Below, in pieces: positions 1,030-51,144 of a DNA stretch of 64,000 bases. The DNA is from Daphnia pulex (lineage: Eukaryota > Arthropoda > Branchiopoda > Diplostraca > Daphniidae). Location of the stretch: the NCBI RefSeq assembly GCF_021134715.1, contig NC_060028.1, forward strand, positions 2,130,501 through 2,194,500, given 5' to 3'. Position numbers and translations under genes: made by a program. How positions within the stretch are numbered: position 1 is the stretch's first letter; each line of letters begins with the position of its first letter. The notes below the pieces were generated by a model. It was given only the letters and a program-made list of their open reading frames with translations, was not told where the DNA came from and did not search any database.

Positions 1030-4000
1030 ATGGATGTAACCGATGCCGAATATCAATGTCATAAGCAAAACACGTCGAGTCAGGCCAAATCTTGCGTGAA
1101 TCGGGCATCTTTTGTCTTCATGGCCAATTTTGAAAACTTCTTCTTGAGGTTAGTGATTTGAATTCATACTTTTCTCTTGTTTAGTTGTAGACCTTGAGAC
1201 TGTCTCGGTGCTGTAAATGCAAAAAAAAAAGCCAACACACATTTCGTACATGGGTACGGTGCACAAAAACTGTTTCCACTTCACCAACTTTTACTCTTTT
1301 CAAGGCTAGGTTGAATAGTCGTCTGCTTGCGCATCCCCTACTACAGAAAATACAAATATGAATTATTTTTTGGTTTAATAACGTCGATATATTGTTTTTA
1401 AAATTATTTCGGAGTAGAGAAGATTTATTTGATTCGCTAATTGCTAGTAGGTTACACAGTCAGGATTTTATTTTCGAGTCAGCCGTATGACGTCATGTGT
1501 TTATTTTTGCTATGGGCGTAAATGATGTAATAATTAGAATTCTTTTGGCCAACGCTGATTACCCTTCTTACGACTTTGAACATCATTTTTCACTTGAGGG
1601 TGTCCCACGTGTACCTGCTGTGTAACTAGGCGTCTTTGGATTCAAATCGTACAATCAACAACCATAATCTGATACCGTACCCGGCGAACCTTCTCTCCGT
1701 GACGTGACTTGTAGAAAGAAAGTTCATTTTAATCGCCTTGAAGCGAAAAATATTATTGTTGAAATAATTAGACAAACACGGACGTGAATCTAGCCCGGAG
1801 TGATTGTGTATGCAAAATCGTTTCCTCTCCCAGAAGAATTCAGTAGAATCCAGTGTCAATAATAAGGCTCTTCATGTGTTTTGCTTAAGTAGGTTAAAAT
1901 TCGAAAGATTGCTTTCATTTGCATCGTTTATCTGAAACAAATGTTTACATTAGTGTTGCACGACCGATGTGAGTTTATCATGAATCTGCACTTGCGCACT
2001 TCCTCGGTGAGGTTACGGCAACCGTTAGGCCAGTGCTAAATAGGCTTGTAAACAAGGTTGCTTTATCCAAATGCCATGATGTACATTTTTAAAAGCTGGA
2101 CATGGTCAAAGATTAAAAGAAAATTGAATTTTACTTTTTTTTTCTTTCCAGATGGGGTATCACTGTAGCCAAAAACCCGTGGACTTACATCATCGGCAGT
2201 ATTGTAATAGCAGCTACATGTTCGATAGGGTTGCTGAACTTTACAGCCGAAAACAGGCCCACTAAACTTTGGATCCCGCAAGATTCGGGTTTCGTACACA
2301 ATTCGGAATGGCTTCAGGAACATTTCCCTAACGAGATACGACTGCAATCGTGGGTCTTGGTCGACGATGATGTACTGAGGCCTGAAACTTTTCTTTGGGT
2401 GAGTTATTCTTCATTTCTTAAAATTAAGCCAGGCCTACAATCTTTTTTTTATTGATTTTTTATTAATTTAAAAAAATGATTTGATAGATGCTCGAACTTC
2501 ATGATAACATAACCGAACTTGCCTCAACTAACGGATACAAATGGAAGGATGTTTGTTTCAAGTAAGATTGAGTAACCATGTGGGTGGTGTCGTAGTGAAT
2601 CATAGAATTAATTTTAAAAAAATTATTTGATGTATAAGGATCCCAGTTGTAACTGAACCAGAGACCAAGCGAAGAAGGAAACGACAAACCAATAGCAGTG
2701 AAATCGAATCTTTTGGTTTCGAGGATTTCGATTTTGACGGGTTCGATTCAAATTTTGAAGATATTTCAGCTCCTGCCCTAGATCCCAATTTCGAACCGGC
2801 CATTGATCTGCCTATTGGTAAACAAATTCAAAAACTAAAAATGGCTGTCGAAAAATGTGTATAATTTCCATTGATCCTAAAAATAGGAATATTCTGCGAC
2901 ATCGTGGAAGGGCTGGAAGAAGCTTGTTTAGAGAACAACATTCTAGATATCTGGAATTATAAAAAGGAAGTCATCAGTAAACTTTCCAGACAGGATATCA
3001 TCAATGCCATCAACTCTGTTGAAAGGAGTAACCTTACCAGGGTCCAGTACAGCAATCTGATCGGCCAAGTAAGTTTTGCCTCCCTCTATTAGGTTTTTTG
3101 ATTGTCCGACTTTAATTTCATTTGCGGTGTATTGGCCTTAGCCGCGTTACAACGAATCGGGGCATATCGTCGGAGCTGGTTCGGTGCTCGTGCAATTACT
3201 CACGCGTGTCAACTACTCACTGATCACCCATGACGCAACGTCAAACGACGCCGGAACGGGGGACCTTGTAAGCGAATTCGTTTTTTATACGAATACATTA
3301 GTTGCTACTCGGACGAATAGGATATCGCAGAATTGAATTTGCAATCATTTTTAGGTTGATCCCATTAGTCTTGAATGGGAAGGAGCCTTTGTCAACCTGC
3401 TCCACAATTTCACCGTCACTCTCAACAATTCAAACTTGTATTACATGGCTTCCAGAAGGTAATGTAACTCGAGACATAATTTATTCTTTATAGCTTTTGG
3501 CTGTTTTTACTTATACACTTCTCTTGATTTTAATCAGTTTCGGAGATATTAGTTCGGCTACCATCCTTGGTGATGTGCGACTCCTCTCCGCTGGAATTTG
3601 CGTCGTTTTCATCTATGTTCAGCTGATGCTGGGCAAATTCAATTTGGTTGAACAACGCGTAAGAAGAGAAGAACCTTGATGAATTCTTTTGCCGGCGGAG
3701 GATTTTTTGTAACGCTAACTTGTATTTCTGTTACCAGGCATTTCTTTCCTTAACTGGAATAGCTTCGGTTGCTATGGCCATCTTGGTCAGCTACGGCCTT
3801 TGCTCTGCGTTCGGGGTCTTCTACGGGCCCGTGCATTCCATATTGCCGTTTTTGTTGCTGGGCATTGGAATCGACGACATGTTCGTCATCGTTCAATGTT
3901 GGAGCAACTTGAACAAGGAAGAAATGAAGAGATCATTGCCGGTTCGAATTGGCATCACCATGAAACACGCCGGCGTGAGCATCACGATTACATCAGTCAC

Positions 4001-30035: not shown

Positions 30036-31224
30036 TCAATTGGACGAGGCATCTGCTGGTGCTGGTGCTGCAGCTGGCGGTTGATTATAACTGCCAAAAA
30101 TATTGCCGCCATTGGCGATATAAGTGCGGTAAACATTGGTGATGAACACGGCGACGACGAGGAGGACTAAAAGATCGTCGACAAGGCCCAACAGGCCAAA
30201 GGCTGCTTCCGGTATGATATCGAGCGGTGAAAGGAGGTAAATCACACAGCCAATCACGAGAAGGCTGACACGAAGGCGATACAGGTAAAGGAAGCCTCCT
30301 TCTGAAAAGACTTCGCTTAAAATGTGACGGAATAGAACAGGAAGCTCGCGAATATTCTCCCAGAACTGTTGGGAAACGATTAGATTATTACAAGACGTGT
30401 TATTTAAAAAATAATAATGATTTCAAATGAAATATACCGGTCTGGGCTCGCCACTGTAGCGACGATTGTAGCTATTGATTTCACGGATGAAAGTGGTTAA
30501 ATCTGGCTCTTCATCTGACCCGCTGGCGGGATTCAATTCATTCTCGCTAAAACCTTGAAAGAGGATCGTAACCTGAAATGAAAAAGACATCTGTAACTCA
30601 ACTGCATCCCATCTGGCAGCATCTGTGTGACTATATTCACCTGCTGTCTGCAAACAGGGCAACGGACTGCCCCTAAAAAACTGCCATGGGCCCTGTAGGC
30701 AAGCCAACACCGACCTGGAAATAACAACAGGCCTGTCTTTAATAATTTTGACCAAAAAAGAAGAAAAATGTTGACTTGACATGAAGGTTTCACACTTACA
30801 GCAAAAGATATGGCCACAGTTGGTCTCCACTTCATACTCAATGTCATTGAGGCAGACAGGACATTGATTCTGTTGACCGTACCTTCTTCTTGGTTGGACT
30901 TTATGAATTACATGCATGTCACACTTAGCGTAAATTTCATTTTTATTAATAGACAAGGAAACTTTTGGTACCTCTCATGGTTTCACGAAGTAAATTCACA
31001 TTTTCCCTCTCCTCAGGATGGACAGTTTGTTCTCGTCTCTCAGACCTTAATGGTAACCAGAGTGCCAACACATCAAACACCACGAGCAAAGAAAAACTCT
31101 GTTACTTTTAATCAACAAACCTCATCATGTAGTATCCAAAAAGAACGAGAGCGATCACACAGGCGAGTGTGATGAGAATGACCTCTTCACCAACACCTTC
31201 GATACTGAACAACGACATTAGCAT
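30036..31224 (-). CDS. RNF170: RNF170-type membrane RING E3 ubiquitin ligase
   Basis: Six exons (31121-31224, 30972-31045, 30800-30898, 30641-30714, 30438-30572, 30036-30365) sum to 816 nt, 271 aa, in phase. Order: an N-terminal membrane helix (residues 16-33, VILITLACVIALVLFGYY); the HPEE..LLRE linker; a RING domain (CPVC, then NCGHIFCCRC, then CPVCRQQ); the FIREINSYNRRYSGEPRP segment; then a DUF1232 domain with two membrane helices (YLLSPLDIIPEAAFGLLGLVDD). This matches human RNF170 (258 aa) along its length. The human protein sits in the ER membrane and ubiquitinates activated IP3 receptors. The C-terminus here adds an Ala/Pro-rich tail. The intron before the RING was set by phase; reading through it gives a misleading longer frame. 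Confidence 0.92.
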
Positions 31225-34200
31225 TTTACCCTGGAATATCACACCAGGCAGTATTTGTTTTGGTTTTTTATTGCTCTAGTTTCTAGTTACAAAACTTGTG
31301 ATAACGAGTGGGATATTATTTGACTCGTCCACCAACGTTGATGCATCGTTAAATTTCAACGTCCACCATATCACGTACACATTTTCTGTAGCAGACGAAA
31401 ATAACAATTTCTGTCATCACTCTACACAAAAAAATATTGACATGCCAAAACACGCCCGTCGATTGAAATATTGAGAAGCCTCTTCTAGCAATACGGGCAA
31501 TAAAAAAAATGCAAATTTATTATTCGATCGTATTTTTAATTGACAACATTCACAATTTACTACAGCAGTCGTTCATTTTTAATCCAAACTTTTTTGCCTT
31601 CCGTAGGGAGCCGTATGGTTTAAAATTAATCCATTCTAGTAACAGCAGTTGTATTATATAGACAATTGACTTCTCCGTCGAAAGCTCGGCATCAGCCAAA
31701 CAGCAGATGCAAGAATATGCATGAATCACAGCTTGGCAATCCATCATGACTTTATGGAAATTCAGAACGGTATATGATTGTAGGCATCAAGCCGCCATCA
31801 CACGACCTAACCACCTCTGCTGTCGAAAGTTCAGTGACTTGACAGAATATGTTTGAATTATTCCCGAAAGCAAAACGTTCGACACAAATCGCACAGCAAA
31901 TGCAAGGTGTACAGCACACTATCCGTTCAGCTTCTTGAACTTTTGAATCGCGTATAGATATTCACAAATCCAAAACATGACTTATACACAAACTTTGTGA
32001 ACCGAATCAAAAAAAGAGAAATCAACACATCTCTCTCCATAACATTGGACTATATTTGCATGTTATAAATTATTCATGCGACTTGCGATCGAAAAAGAGA
32101 ACTCAAGTGGCGTGTCGGAGCGACATCTTGAAAGACTCAATTTGTCGCCGAACGCGGGAGACCGAAATGAATTGATACCGCGAACGCCAAACTATTGCAG
32201 CAGCAGCTCGTCAACGTTCAATCTACTTGGGCAAAATAAATTAAAAATGAAACATCAAAGATTTTGAATACGGTGCTATACTGAGAAATGAAAGTATTTA
32301 TTATAAACCTCATTTTGTTCCTGGAAACATCCGCAGACACCTTTTCAAAGTTCAACGTGAAGCATTCATCCAGCACAACGTGTAGTATACTGCTTTGATG
32401 ATTTCAGAAATCCATCCGTTATAGTCTGATGATTACTTACTTATGCATGTATTGTTGTTAATGGTGTCATTGGGTTCTTTGGATTTCGTTCAAGGATTCT
32501 TTTTCTTTTCATTGTAGTTTTTTGAATGCTGTGGGGTAGTTTGGCCATCTATTGGGAGTTCTGGGAAAGACGATATGGGAGCGCAATGGTTTGGCGCTCC
32601 TTTGATTTTCATATAATCGCAGTGAGCATGTATAACAATGACCACCTTTCAAATTCTTTTCAGGTCAGGTTTACCATCGTTGGAGAACATCAATAGCAAT
32701 TCCATGACCATGATTCTTCGACTTCCAAGTAAATTCTTTTATTGTCCGACTTATTCTCTTCTTCCCCCCGTTGAACATCACAAAAATGGCCGATGACTAG
32801 ACGGTTTTTTCTTTCCCATTCTAAAGGTCAACATTTCTGACAAGCACCTTATCGTTTTATAATAATTATAGTAATTATCCTATAATCATAGCGTGACAGA
32901 AATTAAATTATTATTATTTAATTTTTTTCCGTTTACGTTATGCCATTCATTAAATTTATTAGTATTTTCTTTTTCGCCGACGTGGCATTCAATACCTTCC
33001 GTACATGGGTGTTGATGGTGGTCTATGATAATTCATTTTTTAAAAATCATTTCATAATTCCATATTTTTTAAATTTGGCGGGCATTTGTCACAGAATCTT
33101 GCCATCGACAATATTTCCGACTTACTCTATCACTTATTACGTCATTGTACTTTTCAATTATCCTTTCACTAGACACAACATTGAACTCTTTTACAAAGTA
33201 GAATAAGAATTCACCGGAATTCACCGAACTGGGATAAATAATAAATTCTTCTGAAATCATCAAAGGACACAAGTCAGAGTGTGCGACAACGGCGACATTT
33301 CCAAGGTTTCTTCTTCTTTCGCAATAAGAAAAAACGAACAATTATATAAATCCATAAGTAAGACAACTACAAGCCAGTCGTGCATGTAGCTATAACTACA
33401 GTAAATACAATTAAGGCGAGACCTTTATGCTGTGCATCAAAACAGAGCGCTGTTTGTTTGTGATAAATAGGAAAAACCTGTTTGCTATATCTGGCGGGTT
33501 GTGCAACGAATTTTGGCTTCACATCATATACGAAAAACCATCCGATTGGATATAGTAGTAGTAGCACTAGTTTGCACACATTATGCAAAGCAGATATATA
33601 TGTTTTGGCAATACGGATCTATAGACGGAATGACGTTCAAGACTGTGCTGTGTACAAGGTCCCGGTTTTAATTGATTACCTGGTTAGCCTTGCAGGTGTC
33701 AGCCAGGCTATCTCCTTTTCAAGTGGAATAATGTTGGCCGTTCCACGTCTTTAATGCTGCGCGTATGTATACAGGCGGTCGACATTTCACGCCCTACTTG
33801 CTGCTGCTGCCGTAATACATAATATGTACACGCGGAGCGAAATGATTTGTTGGGTCGTGCTCTTTTTTGGTCATGTCTGTGGAGAGGCTTAAGGCGTGAC
33901 TGCTGCTGTCTACCACCACCACCGACTTCAGAAGCTTTACAAAGTGTGAATTCACATTTTGATATATAATCCTATTTAAAGACATTGATAATGAATGGCC
34001 CAGCACACCGCGCGCTTGGCTGAACATGAATCAACTCTACATCGTCATTTTTCTCGGATGAAAGGAAACAAAGTCCCTTTCAGCCCCCAAACATTTTCTT
34101 TTTTTTACAAAACTTAACGGGTGGCTTCATCCTAAAGATTATTATTAGACTCTGAGATTTTTCTTTTTTATTATCATCCTGGGAAATGTAGGACAACGTT

Positions 34201-35319
34201 TTAGACGCTATTGTTTTTGTTTTTGTTAAATACATTTAATCAGAGGAAGATTTTCTTTTTTAAATCGGAGATTGTTGATCACCGTTCTGTAAATTAGAAA
34301 GTCAATTTTAATTAATTTCGATTTGTTTCTTTCTATTATTCCCGAATCGGTAAAACTTTGAGAAATTCGATTGAATTTGTAGTTTCGATTACTAGATGGC
34401 GTTGAAGAATTTACTCGGGGGAGTAAATAGATGGCGTTGGTGACGGCATTTTCCGGTTTTCTTCTTTTTACATTCATTTCTCACGCGCTTCGTTATTAGT
34501 CGCGGAGAGAGAAAAAGAAGATGAGAAGAAATTAAAAAATAAAAACGTTTCATTAAAAAGCAATTTGTGCAAACACGGCACCCACACTATACACGAGCTC
34601 GGCATCGACAATCCATTTCGTGATTCCGGCGCCCGCGTGATGTCCATTAGCGGCATGGCCTTTTGACGAGTATATAGTTTTCTCTCGGGTCTCGTGCTGG
34701 AAGATTTCCATACAAATGGCCTGCTGCGATATCGTTTGTTTCATTATTGGCACGTTAATCAACTCGCATTTCCCATCATCTTCCAATTCGATATATTAGA
34801 CACCACCAAATTGGCTTTTTTATTACTATTACACCGAGCGATGGCAATAATAATACGAGAATATGGAAAGAAGAATATCGCGTGAATATTCCTCTCATTT
34901 CAATCTCCGCGTTTTAAGTTGTCGAATATCTGAAACTCCAAGTGAAACTCCTTAGATATATTTGACGTCGAGTGCTGATGGCCTAAATAGTTGTTGCGCA
35001 ACATGCACTCGGCTGTGTATCAGAGATAATCAGATAAGCGCAATCTCTTCCTATTTGTGTCAATAAGTCAATCGTCGTGGATTATCGGTCGACTTTGTTC
35101 GGACGGGATTTTCCACCACTGCTGCAGTGCATGTGACTGTCAATTTTTTCCTTTTTATCTTCTTTGTGTGCGCTATACTTTGATATAAGTAGACAACCAG
35201 TCCAAATGTTTAACTGCAATGGGAAAAAATGTAGAAACATTAATTTTGAATAATTTCATAAATAATTTCAACACAAATCGATCAAATATAGAACATTTGA
35301 AATCAAATAGACACGGTCG
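31225..35319. other. Non-coding interval, first part of the 17-kb gene-poor stretch
   Basis: No protein gene is supported on either strand. TAGATGGCGTTG elements occur at about 34393 and 34429, 36 bp apart. The remaining frames are short and lack domain-like composition. Confidence 0.4.
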
Positions 35320-35335
35320 ATTCGAGGCTCTTTTG

Positions 35336-35426
35336 TGATTCTGATTATTTCTCGAAAGCCAGTTGTGATTTTTTGACGTCAGCCAAAAATGTGAAATGGC
35401 ACGGCTTTCTGAGCAACAATCAAAAA
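35336..35426 (-). ncRNA. mir-315: microRNA precursor mir-315
   Basis: On the minus strand, 35425 down to 35403 reads TTTTGATTGTTGCTCAGAAA followed by GCC. This agrees with the mature miR-315-5p I know from Drosophila and other arthropods. The 3p arm (35360 down to about 35337, starting GGCTTTCGAGAAATAATCAG) pairs with it. GGCTTTC pairs with GAAAGCC, GAG with CTC, and AATAATCA with TGATTGTT allowing G-U, giving a stem of about 22 bp with few bulges and a loop of about 42 nt. Conservation and hairpin together make this a strong call. Drosophila miR-315 is known as an activator of Wingless signalling through Axin and Notum. The precursor probably derives from a longer non-coding transcript across the interval to the right. 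Confidence 0.93.
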
Positions 35427-38400
35427 CATTGGGAGCTATTATATAATGCAGCAGAATATAAGCGGCGACACACACAATGTCACACCCATCATATCCATCC
35501 GCGGCATCCACATCAGTTGATTGAAGAATTTTCAGAAGCGACACTCGTCTCCGATCATAGAGATGATCCATCATCCATCGGCGATCATCACACACAATAC
35601 CCAGTCCATCCCCCACCCCCACGACACTAGATTTCAGACGTATATATATAAAAAGCTTCCATCTCTTGTGCTGCTGTGTATAGATTTCCACGTGGTTCAC
35701 ACATATATAGAAAAGCACAGCACACAGCACAACCAAACCATACAAACTTTTTTATTCGTAGTAGAATTTTATCCATCGATCAAACTAAAGCGGCTGCTGC
35801 TGCTGGCGGCTGATGATGACGCAACGAGAATTTTTTTCGTTTCCTTTTCAACAAAATAAAAATGGAGAAAATATTTTATTTATACACAGCATAAAATATA
35901 TAAGAAAAAAGAAAACAACTTTTCACCTCTACCGGCGCGCCGAGCTCTCATACACTCGGGGCGAGACACACACACGCGAGAGAAATATATATATATATAT
36001 ATACTTTATATAATATTAACGTCGACGGAATGGAGACGATGGCGTCGGCGCTGTTCCCTTCATAAAATGACCCCGCCCACTTTTTTTCCCCCTGAAAAAT
36101 ATTTCTCCGCCCACTTCTCGTGATGCATATCATCAAAAAACTTAATTCGTTTGATTTCTTTTTTCCCGTCACTAAATACCCGTGAGCGGAATGTTGACTG
36201 TTTAATCGCATCACAATCAAGTCTAAATCATTTGAAGACAAAATCCCCGCGCTATTTGAACAAATCAAAAAAGTCTGACGTTTATATATTTTTTCCAAAC
36301 GCGCGGAGAGAAATCCAATCTAAAACCTTAACAAACACACACACACACAAGGCAACGGTTTTTTTTTTTTTGTTGACTCGACGGGCCTCTGTTTATGTGT
36401 CAACATTCGGCCGGCAGAGAAAAGGAAAAAAAAAAAAAATCGCTGCCGGCCGGGCCGCGTCACCGGATCCAGTTTCTGCCGCGTCCGTCGTTTTTTTATT
36501 TTTTTTATTTTTTATTATTTGTTGCCGACGTCATCGATCGATAGTTGAAATACATAAAATGTGCTGTGAACAACAGCAGGCGGCTCACAGACAGAAAAAA
36601 AGAAAACGAAACGAATATAGGCTATATCTCTTTAGGTGATTAAAATCTTTTATTATATCTATACGAAACGCCGGTGAAGAAAATGAAAAATCATTCGGCA
36701 TCATCGACACACACGATTGTGCATAGAAAGGCGTTTCGGGGTTTTTTCTTGTTCCTTTTTTTTCTTATTAAAAAAATAAAATGAAATGAAAAATTGAGTA
36801 GAGACCAAAGATGGCGCTGCCAATCGTTCAATAGACGTACACGCCGCCCTAGGCATCAATAAATCATTTCACTTATACCCACCCGAGCAACAAAGTTTCA
36901 CCTTCTTCTTATACATCACGCATCCATATATAATGTATTAAAAATAATAGATGCACATATTAGCTATAAGTATAGGCCTATCGAGCCGTTCCTGTTAAGA
37001 GAGAGATAAGTTGATTTAATCAACTAATATAAACGCGATGGCGTATTATTTAGGCAATACATAACAAATCATTATGCAGAAGAATAAAAAAACAAGTCGC
37101 TTCTGATAAATAATTAGTAACAAGAAGAAAAAAAAGAAGCTCCTGGAAAAACAGAAGCTTTGAACCATTTCTTTTGTGTGTATAAAATATTTTTTTTATT
37201 TTTTCTTCGAAAAACTTTTGAAAGATGGAGTGACTTTTATTATCTATTGTGCTGTGCAGAGGCCTAAAAAACAGAATTAACGCGCCGTTTTCAAAAGAGA
37301 ATCTAATCATTTTTCGAACCGGAACGCTGTTAAAATTAAATAAAACCAAAAATTAAGTTGCTGGAATCGGTATATATATAGTGTATAGCCGGAGGGGTTT
37401 TTATGTTAATGTGAAAAGGGGCTATAGCTCTGCTGCTGCTGTATAGTATAGAGCATAGAGTAGAGTTTAGAGACGAGCCAAAAAGTATTGATTTATTTCA
37501 CAGACCACGCCCAGACATACCAGTCACCTCTTTTCACGCTGCAGAGAAAACTTTTCAGTCGTCTGTAGACGGAGTCTATACAGCTTTTAGGCCTCGTGAT
37601 ATTTTGCTTTTAATCTTTTTAAAAACTTTTGGAAACTTTATTTTTTTATTTTTTGGTTGCTGCCGTCATTGATTTTTCATTTTGTTGTACATTGGATCAT
37701 CCGATTGCGATAACGTCGCTCAAACTTCCCAAACTTTATTGACATTTGAATTTATTTTTTCGTTGTTATTATCTTTTCGAGCAATAAGAACATTTCAAAG
37801 TCTAAATAATAATCACCTTTAAACATAGAAATATATTCCCAGCAGAGTAGAGAAAAAAGAAATATTTAAGCTATAGGAAATTACATTACATTTATAAAGC
37901 CCCGGCATCAGTATTTTCGTCGAAAAATATATTTATATTATATAAGATTTGTGCTGCTGTTGGTGTATAGAAAAATATATAATTCTCTATCTAATATTAT
38001 ATAAAAAGCTGTTTGAGAAGGGAAAAAAAGAAGAAAATGAGTCGGCACTATTTTCATAAATAATAAGTGCTGTCTAATATTTGATTTCTTAGCGCAACAG
38101 CAAAGAAAAGGAAATAGAAAGACACACACAGAAAATGCGCGTTGTATAGAGGAGAGAGAGGGGAACCGATTTCTCATGGAAGAAAAAGAAAAGAAAGAAA
38201 ACGGTCAAGTGCCTGGGCGGCCAGCTGTGCTGCTGCTTGCTGCCCTGAATGTTGTTGTATATTATGAAAAGAAGAAGAAGAAGATGCTCCAACAGCAGCC
38301 AAAAGGGAAGGAAAAAGCATCTCGTCATCAAGGGCAGCTAGCAGCAGCCAACACTTCTTTTCAGTTGTGTGAAGGAAAACATCGTGACCAGACAGAAAAA

Positions 38401-41400
38401 TGTCGTCTCTCTATAGAGAGTTTAGAAGCTTTAAGATATCCTGTGTATGCCAGCGCGAGATATTACACAAGGAGCTATGCGTATACATTCATTTTCGCCC
38501 TATGATGGCCGTTTCTATGTAACTCGAAGAAATAAGAAGAAAAAAAGGTTTTTCCCCTGGACTGCTGTGAGTAGGTGGAATAGACAACACTTGAAAATTT
38601 TTCTTATATTCCAGGAGAAGAAGAAGAGGCTACAAATGAGTCTAGCTGCTGCGCTGCTGGGCTGTCGGGGTCAGGGGGCGCGAGAGAAATAAACTCTCTG
38701 CGGGGGACCAGCTCTGACGTCATCATCTCTCACGCGTGAAAATATTTAAAAGAAAAGAAACCGGCGCAGCGCCCACAACGGCCACATTCTCCACTGGCAG
38801 AGATCCGCCCAGTAGAGAAAATAAAATAAAATAAAATAAAATTTTTGGGGTCCAGTAGGATAGAATTTGATCGCATTTCACCGAATAATATAACAAGAAC
38901 CCGATCGTTTTATTTCGTTGCGGATGTTATTCAATCTACGAGAACGACAACTGATATCCAAGATAGCCCCGAGGCCTATAAAGCTCCATATAACTATAAA
39001 TTTACACCACCAGTATGCCAGTAGCCTCCATATAATTTAAACTATACATTCATCATTCAATTAAAAAATTGAAAAAAATTCGAGTCGAAAAGTTGCGTCA
39101 TTACAGCTGCGAAAATTACAGTTGGATTTCGTTGTGCTGTGTATATAGGCTATATAACCTGGAACAAAATGAAATAAATGTCTTGTATCTTTTGTGCTCA
39201 AGGAATAAGAACAAGGTAAGAAAAAACGGGGGGTGGGAGAGAGACAGGAGGGGCGTAACTTGACACCATCGACACCTGTTGTATATAACAGTTGTGCTGT
39301 GTGTGCTGGTGGGGGTGCCGTTGCGTCGGAGGATTTTTTCTTTTCCTTTTTCAAAAAATCCTCAGCGTGGGGGCTGTTTGTGTATTAGCCATTATCGGCC
39401 GAGTACATATATCCTATAGAGAGAGAGAACCTTTTCTTCCCAATTAACTTTTATTACCCCCACCCTTGGAACTCAATCACTTAAAACATTCCGTTTCCTG
39501 TGCTGCGCTGCGCTGTGGGGAAATCCCAATTTTTTGGTGTTTCGTCCTTATCCGAATTTATGATTGGACGCACTCCATCAACTCGATATAAAACACCAAA
39601 GGAAACAACACAAAAAAATTCAATTTCGTATATAACTCTACATATACGTATAGTTATATAAACCAAACAATCGAAAGAAAAAATCATTTGTGAGAAAGCA
39701 GCGGGAGTCCTATACCATCAGCACCGCGCCCATTTCAAAAGGAAGAAGAACTTTCTTGAGCGTCCTATCCCGCCCCCAACTGTTCTTCTTCTTCTTCTTC
39801 TCGTCTTGCACACACACCAAAAAGTTCAGAAATAGAAATTTCCCTTCCATAACGACAGACCCCCAGCACACACACACACATGCACACAGCAGAGAGCCCC
39901 GAAAAATCATCGGTTAACACAAAATCGAAAATAATTCCCTGCTCACCTTGTACCTCGTCTATAATCACAAGGGGGTTTCTCCGATTGCGTCTATAAAAAC
40001 GCCATCGAGAGAAGACAAATCTGCCATATAACTAATCATCAAAAGAGAGAGAGAGAGAGCTATAGAGATTGTGAACCAACAAAGTCTCTCGTGCTGTGTG
40101 TAGCGTAGCCTATACATTAAAACAAGATGGCAGTTATAGGCCCGAGCTATATCTTTATGTAGTCAGGAATTAATGATGGGGTGTATATACAGGCGAGGCT
40201 TTATAATACACTGCAATTTAAACACAGGGCTACACACACAAAATCTAAGAAAAAAAAGTTGTTAACACTTGGCAACTTGACGCAGGTGGGAAATATATTA
40301 CAATAAAGATTTGATGTAATATAAATGGAATATAACGATATGATATAAGAAAAAAAGAACTTATTTCTATTTTTTACTCAATTTATAATGCCGGTAAATT
40401 GATCTGTATAAAAGCCGGATGCTGCATCTAATAAATCTAATGCAATAATGCATAGATGACGGGGAGAGTATAGTATATATAGAACGAGACCCCCCAGCAG
40501 CAGCGCAGGACACAGATTGCGTTAGAGATGATTATTATAACCTCTGACTCGATTGTCGCAATATCCGTCGCCTAAATCTTGTCGGAAAAGACGGCGCGTT
40601 TCGCTACTAACGAACCGCATCATCGTCATCGCGGCTTTTGTGCGGTTTCAATTTTTTGGTGGCTGTACAGATGAGATAAAAAAGGACTAACCATCTATTG
40701 CTGCTGCTGTGTTTGAACAAACAGAGAAACAGTTTTGGGGTCAACCAACACATATTACAAATACATATAGAGAAAGAAAAATGAAATCCATCGTATATCC
40801 GGCGGGATTTGAACAAACGACGACGACGTGTATAGTATATGATAACCATTTTCCACACCTCATTAAAGACTATCTTTATATTATATTATTAGATATTTTC
40901 GGGCCCGGGCGTAGTATATATATTATATAAGAGGGGGGTCTTTTCTTGAAATGGTCATGGAATGCAATTGGTTCCCCTTTTATTTTCTGCTTCTTATAAG
41001 GCCTGATGATTATGATAGAGAGGCAAAAAGGATGAGAGAGAAAAGGTGTTCTATGCGGCAATTAATGTCTTGTGGCTGGCGGCGGTCAGCGCCATTTTGG
41101 AAAATAAAATAAAATAAAATAAAAAAAGTTCTTTTTTTCTCACTTTTTTTTTTTAAATTATTGTTTCTCATTTCCGGATGGTTGATTGCATTCAGAACCG
41201 CGACGAAAAACATTTTTTTTTCATGCCCCCTTTTTAAAATTCATTCAAATAGAAAAAAAACCTCCAAAAATTCCCTTTTTTATTATGTATTATTAGGCTT
41301 CTCTTTTAAATCATTTTGGGTTTAATAGGCCTATCATAAAAAGATGGTGGTAGCTTATATATAAGTAGGCCTGCATGACGTATTATATATATATCGAGCC

Positions 41401-42299
41401 AATTCTTTTCATCAACATTTTCTTGTATAACAAGCTTTGGAAAATAAAATAATCGTATAATCGTAATAGCCTGAAAAAAAAAACAAGCTGAGGATTTAAA
41501 AAAAAAATGTCCTGCGGGATTTGTTTGTTGCTGGTTGAGAAAGAACAAAAAACCTTAGAAAAACACTGGCGGGATCTATATATACAGCACGCATTGACTA
41601 ATATACGCAGATTATAATTAGCCCACACGACATCAGTCGAAAGAGAGAATTTGACGTAGTATATACACCCACACGAAATTTGTATGAGCTACTTTTTTTT
41701 TGTTTCATCCCATATGATGCAAGGAATGGAGAAAAGAATTGTCGCCGAGGAGCCAGCAAATTAAAAAGGGCGCGATCATTCAATCCTGCTAATTATTAAT
41801 ACACAAGAGAATGAAATCCTCCTTTTTTTTGTTTTGTTTCTAGGAAAGAGCGTCAAAGAAATCCAATAAAGGCGGGTCCCTTTCTTTCTTTCGCTATAGA
41901 GGCGACTAATAAAACGACAAAGAACCGGCCATTTTAAAATAAATGAAATCGAAAAGAAGAAGAAGAAAATAAAATAAAATATAAAACAGACGGAATTGCT
42001 GGGAAATCGATGGAACGGCCTCGATTTTTGTTCTTTCTTCCGATGAAAAAATTCACTTGAAAACGTTCACACACAGCACACTCACAAAACCGCAAAATAA
42101 AATTCCCATTTCAACCATTTTTGGGTTTAAATTGGTTCTAGGCTAAACAATTAAAAAGAAAAATTTTGTTTTTCAAACTTACCGGGTCGAGATGATTTGA
42201 ATTTGTCTTTATTTCTTTAAATATTAAACAAATAAAATGTATATACTCCTTGTTTTTGTTTCTTTTTCTTTTTTTTTTTGAAATAAATTTTTTAAAAAT
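35427..42299. other. Low-complexity non-coding DNA right of mir-315
   Basis: No gene recognised. There are many short tracts: (TA)n at 35985-36003; CA runs; CTG/CAG clusters; repeated AAAAT units at 38819-38842 and 41101-41121; and CTATAG/GGCCTAT-like words. An AAAGATGGCGCTGCC element lies at 36808-36822. If pri-mir-315 is long, this region would be its 5' part. Confidence 0.4.
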
Positions 42300-42479
42300 T
42301 TCGATGAAATATAAAAAAGAAATGCCGCCGCCGCGTATCGGGGCCTCCATCCGTTCACGACACGATCGCAGACGCAACTGTTGCCGCGCCGGTCACGGAA
42401 CTCGGCAACTCCTCCCCAGCCTCTCCCACCCTCTTTCCTCCTTCTTTCTTTTTCCCCCACCACCTCTCTTTCATTTTCC

Positions 42480-43215
42480 GTTTTTCTTTCGCTATATACC
42501 CAGCAGAGGGTACCGCCCACTTTATCAAGCCTCGTAGCGCAGCAGCGCATCGGCAGCAGCGCGCGCGAATGTCGTCTGGTATTTACGATCGTAAATAATA
42601 AAATCCGTAGAATTCCGGCGAAATTTTATTTATAGGTATCACATTTTGGCATTTGACACTGCGATGTTATATACAGAGGAGGGAGGGGGAGATTCATTAG
42701 CCCTTTCTAATCAGCTATTACTTATACGTCAGTCCCCTAATATAGATATAAAACGAGGCGTCAATCGAGTACATGGAATCAAAATTTTATTCCAATCGAA
42801 ATTTATAAAATCAAATGAAAATCAAATCATTTTCAATTTTTTGCTCTTCCATTTTAATATTTCATTTGAAAATAGTCTGCCCAAATGATAAAAATGATTT
42901 GTTCAATTTTCTTGTCGAAAATAATTTAGAAAAATTTTATTAGAAATAATTTTTGGCTTAAAGAAATAACCGATTTGAATTTTGCAAAAGGTGCGCGAAA
43001 TGGTTGCATAACCCATACATATATAAATGACCATCATCAGAGAGTATACAGAGTGCAGTAGTATAGACGACATCGAGGCAGTGTGGGAGGGACAGAGTTC
43101 CACCCGGCGACGCCTGGGCGGAGCCAGAGCGCAACCAATGAGGAAGCCGATGACAAAAGGTGGCAAGATGGCGAGCGGAGCGATTTAATTGGTCGCAGCC
43201 CGACCCCCCTTGATA
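42480..43215. promoter_or_regulatory. Candidate promoter region in the gene-poor interval
   Basis: Two GC-richer islands stand out from AT-rich DNA. The first (42490-42600) ends in an 18-bp perfect palindrome, TATTTACGATCGTAAATA, at 42580-42597. The second (about 43075-43200) contains GGGCGGAG, AACCAATG, CAAGATGGCG (YY1-like) and an ATTGG (reverse CCAAT) within about 90 bp. Such clustering is typical of a TATA-less promoter. No coding exon adjoins it, so it may drive a non-coding RNA such as pri-mir-315, which is an inference. Confidence 0.35.
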
Positions 43216-46200
43216 TTGTATTCCTCCCGTGTATATCACCCCCCTCCCTTCTATAACCCACCCCACCCTCTGTATCAATGTATACCCAACCCCCTCTTCT
43301 GCCATATAGAGAAGGGGGGAAAAGAAAAGAAAAAACCCACCTTTTTACTTTTTATTATTAAAAAACATAGACTAAATAGACTATAGCTATAGCTACTACT
43401 ACTACAGAGATATATAGCCACTTTTTAAAAAAATTACACAATTTTTCTACATTAGAACCGCTTCTTCCTCCTCTTTGTTAAGTGTCTAGTATGTGTGTAA
43501 TAACGGGGCCTTGTATAATAAACGATAAAAATGTGGGTCGGGGTCATTTAATAGGTCGGAAAACATATGACTAAAAAGAATGCTGCTGCGATGCCGTCGG
43601 ATGAGAAATAAGAAAAGAAAATTTGTTTTATTTTAAAATATTAATGGACTTGATCATCAAAAGTGAATGCTGCGAATAACAGCTGATGGTGATGAAAGGG
43701 CTGCAATGAACAACAGATGGTATCCTTGCTATATAATAATAATCCAAATCCCTGCTATATAGACAGCAGCCAGCCAGCCAGCCAGCAGCAGCTTCCGGAT
43801 TCTCCATTATATAACTGTCGGCAGCGATTATAAGCGCATAGCATTGATGATGATGGCAGGCCGCGGGATTTTCGGCCTCCAGGGATGTGTTAAAAGACAA
43901 ATCAACGGGTTATTATTAATATTGTCCGTCAGTGGCGACGTCTAGCGATTCGAATAAATTTCGAAATGTCTTAAAATAAATCACAGCCAAGCTATACAGC
44001 AGTAGCAGATATACGCAGATGTATAGATGATCAGTGTGATGGATGACTAGCAGCCGTATAGGCCATCCTCTATAGATTGAAACTAGGCAATTAGCGACAC
44101 AGCAAACACCTTTAGGTAAACACAAAGAGCGACGGCAGATGACAGACATGGCGGCCGACGACGAGTTATATAAATCCCATCGACGCTCTAATATAAATAT
44201 AGATATTTGTCCAGTTTTTCATCTTTCTTCTAAAGGGGATCGGCCATAACGTTATGATATATAATCCACATTATTTTTTTTTTCCGGTAAAAAATATAAT
44301 AATAATATATAACAGCTAGGATCACTACAATTTGATCCACACACAGCTGCCCCCCCACTCTTGTACACACCCCTTTTATTCGATGCGGGGGTTATACATA
44401 GACGTGCGTAAATGTCTAAAAAAAACGAAATAGATTTTTTCGTCGGTTGCGATGGCGATCAAGTTGTGCTGTGCTGTGGGGGTGGCTCTGAAATTCCCCC
44501 CTTTTCCTTATACTACACATCAAATGCTGCTGCGGCATTATATATTTTTATATATATAAAAAAAAGGCTTACATGACGTGTACATCATCATGGGAATAGA
44601 TTGTATATATGGGGCGCGGTCCTCCTATGATGGGCAGGCCATCTCGAAATAAAAAAATAAAAAAAAAACTGGTGGAATAAGTTGGGGGTGAAAAAAAAAG
44701 CGGTTTCAATCAGCCCTAAGATCGAGAGGGTGCACCCCCCCCCCCTAATGTTGCGCAACCCTCTTCTTCTTATATAAGGGGGGAATTTATTTTTTTTTAC
44801 TGGATCAAAAAAAAAAAAATGAATAGCCCGAGGGGGTTGCTCCTCTTTGTATTTACACCCAGGCCGAATGTGTGTGTATACGAGCGAGATTTCCTCATCA
44901 ATGAGTATATTGTCAGATTGGAATAATGATGCCCGGCTATTGCTGCATGTGCACAGAAGAACGGAGAGGGCTAAAAAATAAAAAGTTCTATATCCTTTGA
45001 TTCTTCTTCTTCTTCATCTTCTTCTATACGAACGGATAGAGAATGAAGGATCACACTGATAACCCCCTTTTTATTTCATTCAAGAGAGCTCTATATATAT
45101 TAGACTGTGTATGTTTTTCCTCTCTGATTTTTGTGTATATACACGCGAGTCCAGCAAATATAGAACTTGGGCCTGTTTATTGATGCCTGTCTATCTTATC
45201 CACATCCCCCATGTGTTAAGAATGGAAAAAAGGAAAAGAAAAGAAGAAAGAATGGATATATAGTGCACAACATCTGCTGCCAAGCCGGTGCGGATTAACG
45301 AATCTCATCATTTGATGTTCTAACCGCATTCGATGCTGACCATCAAGTCATTATATAATTCTATTTTCTTTTTTTTTTTTAAAGAACGGCCAAGGTGTAT
45401 ATTGAATTACAATCAAGTTCTGGGTGGTTTAGATGTAATATTACGGAAAAAATCAAACTACTTGAATTTCAAAAATAAATAGAAAAAACCACCAAGAATT
45501 TTCTTATTATATAATGGGGGGATATATCAAATAACGGCCAAATAACTGTCTATTTATTTTGTAAGGCTATATTTTCGACCAATCGACTTCCAATGGCGTC
45601 CTGTGAAATATATTTTCGATTTTCATTTAAAAACACCGTCGCGCGATGGAATGTATAAATTGATATTTGTCACGCCAGAAATGATTCATTCGATTCTTTC
45701 GGCATAATACATATAGTGTGAGGCAATCTCGTTCATCATCTGATACTCTTGTACAAGTGACGTCAATAGAAATGGCGCACACAAGACGTTTTCCGAAAAT
45801 ATATTTATAACCGTCAAACACGTAAAAATAAAAAAAATTGGGGGTGGGGGGACATAGAAAACTGGGAGGAATGTAAATATTTAGGCGGCGGGAAATTCAA
45901 ACGCCGAGATGCGACCAAGAGAGAAGAATCTATAAGAAATCTTATTTTGCTGTTAGACATTATTATTATTTCAAAAGGAGAAAAGAAGATAGCTATATAG
46001 GAGAGAGAGCGCGTGTTGTAATAGAACAATGGGATCGATAAGATCCATCTGTGGATGAGAGAGTGAGAGAGCTAGAAATATGTTTCAGTTCAATTCATTC
46101 TTTTCTCTCCAACCCCTCTCTTTGGTTTTTTGGGTTGCCGCCGTTTGATCTCGACATGTCATCCAACGGCTGCAGGCTATTTCCATTTTTAACGATGTCT

Positions 46201-48445
46201 ATGCATAATAGATGTACATGCATAAGGAATCGAAAACATTCGCAACAAACCCCCCAAAAAAGAATAAACAGCAATCGTTATTATATACATAGCAAGCGCT
46301 ATAGCAACAATACAAAACTAGGATCGCGACTGAATCAAGTCCCGAGGTGAAATAATATTATCCAAAGCTCTCCAGTCTAACTAAATTTTATTATTATAAA
46401 GTCTTATCAAATAAAAAAAAAAACGTTTCTTTGTATTTTTGAATATGCACAGCACCAAGGCCGGACCATTAGTCAGCGAAATAGACACACAATAGTTAAT
46501 GAACGAACATTCCCCCCTCTCTTTTTTTTTAAATAGAAATTCGAATCTCCTAGAAAAATAATAAAAAAAAAGAATTCTCTATTCAACAAAAATATAAGAA
46601 ATATCTAAAGTCTCTTGTTCCCCCTCCCCCCCTCCTACGCCCTTCAATCAGCCGACGTGAATCAAGTCGCTCAAGTGCAAACGAAGAAATTTTTTTTCTT
46701 TTAAAATACTCGGAAGAGAAACTTAAACAAAAGAAAATCTAATTATTCCAGAAATTAACGAAATGCAGCGCCATTATATAATACGGGACCGTTGCTGGCA
46801 TTGACTATCTAATCAAGTTCTCCTTTTATATATGCTGGGAAAATGGAACATGAATTTCGAAATGATATATATATCTTTCATGACCATTTGACGACAGCTT
46901 CTCCATATCCGTGCCGCGCTATTCTTGTCTAACATCGAATAGCTGAGAGAATGTGAGCGACAGTGTATTGAGGAGAGAGATATCAGGTAATCATCTGGCG
47001 AATACAATACGCCGACTACACACGCACAACCCAAAAAATGTGTCTATATACCCTCGGAAAATAAAAAAAAACGACGACGACGCCGATCTGATGGAACGTG
47101 AGAAAAAAGGGGGACTTCATTTTTTGGACGTCGATTTTTGTTGTTCCCCCCTCGATTCCACCAAGTATTATAGTGTGCAACATACCCCAAAAAATCGAAA
47201 GGTGATTTCTCTATAGGCATGACAAAAAAAAAATGAAAAGCGTTTTTTTTTTTCTTTCGGCTAGGAGGAGAGATGCGGATGTGACGTGGGAAATTCCGAC
47301 TGGGTTCTTCAGCCCCCCGCACTTTTTTTTTTCAGTACTTCTTCTTCTTCTGGCCGGATCATTTTCTTTTAGATGCGGGACGTGTATACACAATAGGAAT
47401 AGGCCGAGCTCTCACAAATAAATGAAAAAAAAAATATCTAACGATAAAAAACATGGAATCGAAACTTTTTCTTCTTCTTCTTCTTCCCCCTCCTAGGGGA
47501 CATTCCGGATATGATTCTACTAGCTTGATTACCAAAGAGCTATTCTCCCCTCCTTCTTTATATCAAGAAGTAAAAAAAGGGAGGCCTAGAAAAAAAAAAG
47601 TAGGAACATGAGAATGAAAAAGTCACTCGTCCATTTATTTGAAGAGCCTCTTATCTTGAAAAAAAGACCAGTCGACCACCACCATCGATATACGGGTCAT
47701 GTATCACTATTGCGACGACTCTATGGCTAGAAAATAATAAATATATAACTTCGAAATTGTAGTATGTAACCGGCATTGTTAATAACTCAAGCTGGCGCGT
47801 ATTTTTTGTATTAGCTTAATTTAACGTTTCTGTGTCTTTCTTTCAATGTTTCACATTGTTAATTTTCATTTTATTTTGTTTGATTTTTTTTCAAGGAGAA
47901 AAGAATATTAAGAGCCAAAAAAAAATAATAATGATGAAAGAATGAGAGTATAACAATTATGTAGGAATTATTAGGTGCATTCGACAAATCACATCTCGCA
48001 TATCCGGTTGCTAACTAATTTAGTCTCTTCTTCTTCTTCATTTTTTTTAAAACTAAATAGTGAACAAACACCGCCCTCTATTGAACCAAAATTTTTGACG
48101 ACATGCCCACCACCTCCAAAGTTCTTTTTTTTTCCTATTGAGCACGTTTTTTTTTCTCTTTTCAGACTCTAACAAAAATGAAAAAAAACGTAAGGAATGG
48201 ATATTTAAAGACAAGAAAATTGAATTTTTATAGTAATTAATAATAATAATAATAATAAAGGCGGTTGGTTTTGGCCTTTGAAGAAAAAGAAGAAAATCGG
48301 ATGCATCAGGGGGGAAAAGCACTTTCTTGAATGGAACAACCCGGCAATTCCATCTGGCGGTCGAAAAACGAACTCGACAGCCACATAATTAAACAAATAA
48401 ACACAAACAAACACAAGTTTTCTTTTTTATCTCTCATCATTCCGT
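43216..48445. other. Low-complexity non-coding DNA before PPM1H
   Basis: No supported gene. It includes a CCAG/GCCA tandem run at about 43770-43790, CTT runs at 45000 and 47470, poly-purine runs and (TAA)n at 48239-48258. The right edge should contain the 3' UTR of the minus-strand phosphatase gene. Confidence 0.4.
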
Positions 48446-50578
48446 CTACGAATTTGACTCGTTTTTATCTTCAATTTCTGGGTCGCTGGTTCCATCCGTG
48501 ACGGGCTGCAATGGATCAACGATGACCTCCGGCGGCGCCGCAACGTCGCCGACAGTGGCGTCTTTGTCTTCTTCTGCAACGGCGGCGACGACGCCGGCCT
48601 TTTCTTCTTCCGGGTCCAATAGGGTAGCGGCCTTGTCCACAGGCGGAATCCCGTTGGTGTGGATATCGGCGGTCATTCGACCCGGCTGGTTGGCCGCCAT
48701 GACGGCCGACTCGACGACGGTCGATGGGTCGTTGACCGCAATGTCCACCGACACCTGGTGATCAGACTGGCGTTGACTCTGAGATTCCATTTCCTGCTTC
48801 CAGCGGAGGTGCTCTTCCTTGTAGGCGGCCAGCGGGATGACAAAGACGGAGATGTCGTCGATGGTGGCCGATTTGCTGTCGGCCGTCCGCCAACTGCGCT
48901 CGTTCAATTTACCCCGCGAGCACATGACCAAGTCCTGGGCGGCCGACGTGAAGCGGTACCGATACCGGGCCGCATCCTCCGCCGGAAACTGCTCCAGGCT
49001 CCGCTGCACCGATTCGGCGACGCGCTCATTGCTCGTCACGTCCCACAGACCGTCGGTGCCCATCACCAACACATCCGTGTCGTAAATGGCCTCTTTCTCA
49101 ATGTCCACGATGCGAACCTGAATCACAAAATTAAAAAGACATAAATTAAAACCCCAAATAATAATATCAAATGGAGATTTATGGGCCGATAAGGACCTCT
49201 GGTTGTGACGATAGGAAAGGCTTAATGAGGATGCTGGAATTGGGGGCGCGCAAGTCGTGGTCGCCAAATCCACGCGTCACTCCGATGGTGGCCAGGACTC
49301 GGCTGCGTTTGCCTTCACCATAAACAACCGGGAACTTGAGGTCTTCGGGTGTGACCGTCTTGTAAGCCCAGCCGGTCATGTGAGGCTCGCGGTAGAGGAG
49401 CCGCTGGCCAATGTCACGTCGATTGGGACGACGGGAGAAGTCCAGCGCCGTGTACTCGCCGCCCAGCAGCTCCGGCTGGAGGGCGGCCAGCTTGCGAATT
49501 CGCTGACGCTCCGTTTCGGGAGTGAAATCGTTGGACAGTGGGAAAGCCTTTCGGCCACGACAGAGAACGGCCCGGGAGTCTCCAGCATTCGACACGAAGA
49601 GTTTGCCACAAATGAAGAGAGATACCACCACTGTGCAGCCGCCCGTCACGCGATACACGAATCTGTCTTCGGCGATCAGATTGTCCTAATCCAACCCCCC
49701 CAAAAAAAACATTAATGGATCATCCTGTAAAACACAGGGTGAAATGACTAAAATCAACTTTGATTCGTTACCATTTCGTGGAACGTCGCTTCTAGGGCTC
49801 CCACAATGAAACTTTCGACGCCAATTTCTCTTTCAGGAAACCACAAGACTTGATTGCGACCATTCTGGGTAGATTCGTTTATCTCTGGAGTTGGTAGCAA
49901 GTGATGGATCACCTCCATTAGTTTATCCTGTCAAAAGATCTGTTATTAGTAATGAAAGCTTATGTTTAAATAAAATATAAGTGGTCATTTTACATGGAGA
50001 ATACAGTGGAGTTCATTGGATGCCGATATTGCAGCTCCAGTCCCGGCGTGGCCATCAAAAAGAGCAAAATAGGAGTAAGGTATCCTTTGTCTGGATCTGT
50101 GTGTGGTGGAATCTTTTTCAGGTGTAGAGGGAGGAGTGTGGAACTCAGCAGCTTCAGCCGAGTGACCATTATCGGAATGCCTTCTTTCTAGATATCCAAC
50201 ATGGATTCTTGCCTGGTCCTCATTCCTCAGTGACTTTCCAGCGTTGACAGCCCTGAGAAATACATTGACGTTAAAAGTGGAAGATGGCCAGTTGTCTCGA
50301 CAAATAGTCTGCGACAAGAGATTTACTTACTCTGCGTAACCTGAGTTCCAAGGCATTTTGGTTATGTCTCTTGGAACAATGATGGGTCTGATGGCATGAT
50401 CACCAGCCACCTGAATCTCGTCTTCCCCATTGAGCTGGAGGAAGTGGGGTCTGGTGTATGGGAATTTCAGGGGCAATTTCGGTTCGCCGTTTTGTCCTAC
50501 ATCGTTATTCTTGTCTGGTGATGCTGTGTCCAGGTTGTTCACGACGGAAAAGAACGCATTTTTGAACTTGTTGAGCAT
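48446..50578 (-). CDS. PPM1H: PPM1H/J/M-type PP2C serine/threonine phosphatase
   Basis: Five exons (50331-50578, 49994-50252, 49772-49927, 49197-49685, 48446-49117) sum to 1824 nt, 607 aa, in phase. The N-terminal KLPLKFPYTRPHFLQL..DHAIRPIIV block is specific to PPM1H relatives. PP2C metal-binding and core motifs follow: NEDQA (Asp95), FALFDGHAGTGAA (Asp149), NAGDSRAVL (Asp257), IGVTRGFGDHDL and MGTDGLWDV (Asp406), ending with IDDISVFVIPL. All metal-ligand Asp residues look intact. Mammalian PPM1H removes phosphate from LRRK2-modified Rab8/Rab10. The C-terminal 120 or so residues are an acidic, Ala/Pro-rich tail absent from the human protein (514 aa). The start matches the human N-terminus; an in-frame upstream Met (about 34 codons longer) is possible. 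Confidence 0.9.
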
Positions 50579-51144
50579 GGCCGAGACGATGCGTGTGACG
50601 AGAAACGGACGGTAGTGGAAGAGGTGCGACAAGGACGATGTAAACAGTTCCACCGACATCAACAAAACACCGTCTCAGACGGGTGAAAACAAGACGAACG
50701 CGGTGTTTACCAAAGAAAACCCTGTAAATGGTGGTCGAGAAACAATGAATAATTCCCGACACGGCTGACCAATTAACAAGAAATAACACATCAGCATTTA
50801 GCAGACGCCTGTAATGTACACAAAAATGACCCAGATGGCTCCACTGTCGACCTGTCGTCATCTCCTGCCAATCGGAAGCTACTTCACTCTCAGTGATCAC
50901 GGCATTCCAGAATTCACGAGACGTTATTTTATATTTTTATGAATAATGACAAAATGATTTCCATCAGATTAAATTTTATAGCTTTGAAAAATATTTATTG
51001 TAAATATATCTTTATAAACCCAACTAATGTATCGATGACTTATAATGCGCACTGTTTGATTTAGACCACCCATGAATAGGACATTGATCATTTCAATTAT
51101 CACAATACATGGCAAAAATATACGACTGTTGGCGTTTCGATAGG
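50579..51144. other. Intergenic region: PPM1H 5' flank and AGA 3' flank
   Basis: No gene recognised; this should contain the PPM1H promoter and 5' UTR, and at the right end the 3' UTR of the minus-strand aspartylglucosaminidase gene. Confidence 0.4.

What the first reader, a model, noticed from the sequence alone, without database searches (positions are those of the whole stretch)
35336..35426. mir-315 gene in a 17-kb protein-free interval
The minus strand carries the conserved miR-315-5p together with a well paired 3p arm. It lies alone in an interval with no convincing protein gene, while the rest of the window is gene dense. That suggests a dedicated long primary transcript and a protected regulatory domain. 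The hairpin loop (about 42 nt) is rather long.
Basis: partly seen in the sequence, partly recalled or inferred. Interest (0 to 1): 0.75.

Follow-up and report, generated by a model that had tools for sequence, protein, structure and literature searches.

The report
Ordinary mir-315 microRNA gene in Daphnia
This is very probably the water-flea copy of a well-known, deeply conserved microRNA gene (mir-315); it looks real, but the gene is already known and its gene-poor surroundings are not exceptional.

Summary
The minus strand at 35328-35435 carries a mir-315 precursor. miR-315-5p (22 nt) is exact at 35425-35404, the only exact copy in the 133-Mb genome. The hairpin folds at -35.6 kcal/mol (z -5.1), 20 of 22 bases of the 5p arm pair, and Rfam mir-315 matches over its full length at 59.4 bits, E 1.2e-8, just under the 63-bit gathering score. 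The organism is inferred to be a Daphnia: a miRNA described from D. magna matches exactly. mir-315 is already sequenced in D. magna (PMC6828783 Table 2). The predicted pre-miRNA (89 nt) is within the 57-100 nt usual there. The 17-kb interval between an RNF170-like and a PP2C gene lacks convincing coding sequence, but a larger coding-poor stretch lies upstream of the window, so a special 'protected domain' is not supported. A good-looking 3' splice site 115 nt past the hairpin hints at a spliced, intronic primary transcript; untested. Axin and Notum, the targets known from Drosophila, show no notable seed sites (inconclusive).

The parts
35328..35435 (-). mir-315 precursor hairpin with basal stem (extent of the Rfam RF00717 match)
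   Evidence: Rfam RF00717, 59.4 bits, E 1.2e-8 over the window, model 1-83 of 83; RNAfold z -5.1 for 35320-35445
35403..35425 (-). miR-315-5p (22-23 nt), 5' end at 35425
   Evidence: exact 22/22 match for 35404-35425; 20 of 22 paired
35337..35358 (-). predicted miR-315-3p arm
   Evidence: predicted duplex partner with 2-nt 3' overhangs (read); no reads available for this genome
35359..35402 (-). apical loop of 44 nt, which itself folds into two small stems in the MFE
   Evidence: 26 more bases in the unshown loop part than the consensus in the Rfam alignment (30 against 4)
35213..35235 (-). putative 3' splice site (an exon would begin at 35213), about 115 nt downstream of the hairpin; would place the hairpin in an intron of the primary transcript
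   Evidence: 9th best of 800 AG sites on this strand of the interval, 21st of 3332 on this strand of the window, by a recalled weight matrix; no RNA evidence
31225..48445 (.). 17.2-kb interval without convincing protein-coding sequence
   Evidence: codon-usage scans; no Pfam match over cut-off for the 10 ORFs scanned
30039..31224 (-). flanking RNF170-like gene (RING finger, DUF1232), downstream of mir-315 on the same strand
   Evidence: Pfam: DUF1232 over its cut-off, two RING models at E 1e-4 and 5e-4 but under their cut-offs; first exon read by eye; the name RNF170 is recalled
48446..50674 (-). flanking PP2C phosphatase gene, upstream of mir-315 on the same strand
   Evidence: Pfam PP2C over cut-off in two ORFs, 48449-49276 and 49182-49685; outer ends are ORF ends, not mapped transcript ends

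Best explanation
A single-copy, canonical mir-315 gene of a Daphnia. A primary transcript on the minus strand is cut to a pre-miRNA of about 89 nt and then to miR-315-5p, which silences mRNAs that carry AAUCAAA-type seed matches. Shown here: sequence, predicted hairpin, single copy, no convincing coding sequence around it. Shown in print for D. magna: mir-315 hairpin reads. Inferred: Drosha/Dicer processing in this species, an intronic position in a spliced non-coding transcript, and the target set.
For: Exact mature sequence, single copy. Stable hairpin. Rfam match E 1.2e-8. mir-315 with 8250, 6008 and 5551 normalised reads in D. magna juveniles, subadults and adults, PMC6828783 Table 2. Identical mature sequence listed as miRNA 315 in two mosquitoes, with one more base as an unnamed novel candidate in a clam, and as the target sequence of the miR-315 assay used in the snail Lymnaea.
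Against: Rfam score 59.4 is below the gathering score of 63. No small-RNA reads from this very genome. Four pairs at the base of the Rfam structure and one in the stem are not standard here. The basal UG motif was not seen at its usual place (by eye). Of 3328 windows scanned in the interval, 106 have a lower folding energy than the first mir-315 window, so energy alone does not single it out.
Confidence: 0.96

Rival explanations
1. mir-315 sits in a specially protected regulatory domain with its own very long primary transcript.
For: 17.2 kb without convincing coding sequence; the two best donor-like sites on this strand of the interval lie far upstream, at 42182 and 39946.
Against: A coding-poor stretch of 44-49 kb lies close by and others of 14-30 kb appear by cut-off; splice-like strings alone are weak evidence, and eight acceptor-like sites in the interval outscore the one at 35213.
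Confidence: 0.15
2. The hairpin lies in a 5' intron of the downstream RNF170-like gene and is co-transcribed with it.
For: Same strand, about 4.1 kb upstream of its ATG.
Against: No strong acceptor was found just before that ATG (the AG ending at about 31231 is not among the six best sites listed for the gene region).
Confidence: 0.12
3. The 192-codon stop-free frame over the hairpin (35173-35751, minus) is a protein or a miRNA-encoded peptide.
For: A frame this long is rare: 2 of 300 first-order Markov copies of the interval reach 192.
Against: Codon score of -30 bits and no Pfam match at E 0.1.
Confidence: 0.02

Closest known systems
MIR-315 family (Rfam RF00717), including D. magna mir-315 and insect miR-315
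   Same: identical 22-nt 5p arm as printed for insects; full-length match to the family model; 5p/3p duplex with 2-nt overhangs (predicted)
   Different: a longer loop than the Rfam consensus and a less well paired base; the D. magna hairpin sequence itself was not seen

Membership tests
MIR-315 | mature 5p sequence and seed | tested here: met
   exact 22 of 22, single copy; same letters printed for mosquito miRNA 315
MIR-315 | hairpin with 5p and 3p arms paired and 2-nt 3' overhangs | tested here: met
   predicted fold only
MIR-315 | full-length significant match to the family covariance model | tested here: met
   model positions 1-83 of 83, E 1.2e-8 over 64 kb
MIR-315 | Rfam gathering score of 63 bits (a curators' annotation threshold, not a biological property of the family) | tested here: not met
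   59.4 bits; that the long loop and basal mispairs cost the missing bits is inferred
MIR-315 | expressed with precise 5' ends | not testable with these tools
   no reads for this genome; D. magna mir-315 hairpin read counts in PMC6828783 Table 2
MIR-315, function as in Drosophila | seed sites in Axin and Notum 3'UTRs | tested here: inconclusive
   Axin C9 copy: no 7-mer or 8-mer in 3.5 kb after the stop (one 6-mer). Axin C7 copy: none in the first 2.6 kb, then a 7-mer at 2653 and an 8-mer at 3007. Notum: one 7-mer-m8 about 1.6 kb after the stop read by eye. Background 0.35 7-mer-m8 sites per kb. UTR ends unknown

The most novel reading that the evidence does not exclude
In Daphnia the unchanged miR-315 no longer targets Axin and Notum, the Wnt inhibitors it represses in Drosophila, so its target set has been rewired while the miRNA stayed identical.
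Probability: 0.2. Interest if true: 0.3.

Novelty: already known. Interest (0 to 1): 0.1.

Why it matters
It confirms an ordinary gene call: a single-copy, sequence-identical mir-315 in what is very probably a Daphnia, placed between an RNF170-like and a PP2C gene. Its one testable extra is whether its targets in Daphnia are those known from Drosophila.

Tried and rejected
Other small RNAs: at gathering score Rfam lists 0 matches in the window, mir-315 included; at E up to 5 the only further matches are two weak ones outside the interval, and in the 1.1 kb around the hairpin two weak snoRNA matches (E 2.9 and 8.8) taken as chance.

Other hairpins: 3328 windows of the interval gave 506 candidates in 145 clusters, of which the 60 of lowest energy got z-scores from 60 shuffles each. 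The best was -4.0 at 36350-36459 minus, a GC-rich inverted repeat with A and T runs, judged by eye not miRNA-like. mir-315 is not among the 60; I infer that it failed the single-hairpin filter because its loop folds into two small stems.

Coding content: the best codon scores in the interval are 14.2 bits (34574-34729 minus, 52 aa) and 13.7 (42350-42421 plus, 24 aa). The best exceeds 19 of 20 Markov copies (maxima 8.3-16.3) and the second exceeds all 20 second-best scores, so a short exon cannot be excluded; the stretch 32000-47900 was also part of the background of that model. With a 214-kb background no segment of the interval reaches 14 bits. The ORFs holding the first, and one frame near the second, have no Pfam match (10 ORFs scanned; one other had two matches under cut-off, E 0.033 and 0.083).

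Relatives elsewhere: the exact 22-mer has 0 matches in genome contigs and viral contigs, as expected of collections of prokaryotes and viruses.

Papers: the Drosophila study of miR-315 and Wingless (Silver et al. 2007) was looked up by DOI and is not held; its content is taken from passages of a review (PMC11456543). PMC8196560 words the effect as 'increasing' Axin and Notum, against the review; not resolved here. The main text of PMC4569176, on D. magna miRNAs, does not hold '315'.

Full report
What is there. On the minus strand, the 22-nt miR-315-5p is exact at 35425-35404 and occurs once in the 133,188,837-base genome. The surrounding 126 nt fold at -35.6 kcal/mol against -20.1 (sd 3.0) for shuffles, z -5.1, 0 of 200 as good. 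In the MFE 20 of 22 bases of the 5p arm are paired, with mean probability 0.88 of pairing with the 3p arm; reading 5p as 35425-35403 and 3p as 35358-35337 gives 2-nt 3' overhangs at both ends. A CNNC motif lies 18 nt past the predicted 3p end (its role in Drosha processing is recalled); the basal UG motif is not seen at its usual place (by eye). Rfam's mir-315 model matches over its full length at 59.4 bits, E 1.2e-8 for the window, below the gathering score of 63; the alignment shows a longer loop than the consensus, four non-standard pairs at the base and one in the stem. At E up to 10 no other place in the genome matches the model, with 56 of 21,995 first-look candidates scored; 2 of 14 control genomes gave matches, none over the cut-off.

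Which organism. The genome has 13 contigs; the seven whose lengths were seen are 6.6-13.4 Mb. That such a genome fits Daphnia pulex is recalled. The genus is supported by an exact, single match to miR-nov-4-3p, listed as a novel miRNA of D. magna; presence of that sequence outside Daphnia was not checked.

Is it known. Yes. PMC6828783 (passages, sections 6 and 8, and part 1 of 2 of section 10 seen) lists mir-315 among 66 conserved miRNAs of D. magna, with 8250, 6008 and 5551 normalised reads in juveniles, subadults and adults, and gives 57-100 nt for most conserved pre-miRNAs with four longer ones, mir-315 not among them. The identical mature sequence is in 12 papers of the library (listing). 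Passages of three were seen: it is miRNA 315 in two mosquitoes (PMC2834634); with one more base an unnamed novel candidate in a clam (PMC3972184); and the target sequence of a bought miR-315 assay used in a snail (PMC5834643). D. pulex mir-315 itself was not seen in a paper (searches; the main text of PMC4569176 does not hold '315').

Surroundings. The interval runs from the first coding exon of an RNF170-like gene (ATG near 31224) to the apparent stop of a PP2C gene near 48446. A codon-usage scan trained on 25 ORF stretches of the window gives best scores of 14.2 and 13.7 bits in the interval, over short stretches of 52 and 24 aa; maxima of 20 Markov copies run from 8.3 to 16.3, and 1 of 20 exceeds the best. 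Real exons of the window score up to 143 bits, but several weak true exons score as low as 13-25, so a short exon cannot be ruled out. With a 214-kb background no segment between 30380 and 48441 reaches 14 bits. Of 10 ORFs of the interval scanned against Pfam, nine gave no match at E 0.1 and one gave two under cut-off. In the 214 kb around the locus the interval is the second longest coding-poor stretch at cut-offs 14 and 18 and the third at 22; the longest, 44-49 kb, ends about 22 kb upstream of the window start. The scan is crude and can miss weak genes. So the 'protein-free' part of the finding broadly holds and its 'protected domain' reading does not follow.

Primary transcript. An acceptor-like site at 35213, about 115 nt past the hairpin, ranks 9th of 800 AG sites on the minus strand of the interval; the two best donor-like sites on that strand lie far upstream at 42182 and 39946 (weights recalled and not calibrated on mapped introns). 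This suggests, without proving, that the hairpin lies in an intron of a spliced transcript. A 192-codon stop-free frame over the hairpin (reached by 2 of 300 simulations) has a codon score of -30 bits and no Pfam match, so it is not read as a gene.

Function. In Drosophila miR-315 represses Axin and Notum and so activates Wingless signalling (passages of a review, PMC11456543; original not held; PMC8196560 words the effect the other way). In shrimp it represses a prophenoloxidase-activating enzyme (passages of PMC6178132). Here two Axin-like genes (C9 and C7, the DIX domain at the protein's end) and a Notum-like gene (C3) were found with Pfam DIX and PAE models (names by recall). After the C9 Axin stop there is no 7-mer or 8-mer seed site in 3.5 kb; after the C7 stop the first are a 7-mer at 2653 and an 8-mer at 3007, far beyond the first poly(A) signal near 554; Notum has one 7-mer-m8 about 1.6 kb after its stop. 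With 0.35 7-mer-m8 sites per kb as background (428,000 bases, both strands), neither presence nor absence is significant. Coding-sequence sites were not assessed.

Verdict. A real-looking, canonical, already known microRNA gene in a moderately gene-poor stretch. Interest is low.

Noticed in passing
window 35328-35435, plus strand: The antisense of the hairpin also folds (-32.9 kcal/mol, no shuffle control) and matches the mir-315 model weakly (32.9 bits); an antisense miRNA is possible but unsupported.
   Followed up: partly
L013 and L014 (C9:2844000-2852000 and C7:10545800-10553800): An Axin-like gene is present in two near-identical copies on different contigs, alike also in the 1.5 kb after the stop that was printed (by eye); a recent duplication or an assembly matter.
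   Followed up: no
about 22-71 kb upstream of the window start on C12 (L030, L029, L016-L019): A 44-49 kb stretch with hardly any coding signal by codon usage.
   Followed up: no
window 36350-36490: GC-rich inverted repeat with A and T runs about 1 kb upstream of mir-315; it folds on both strands.
   Followed up: partly
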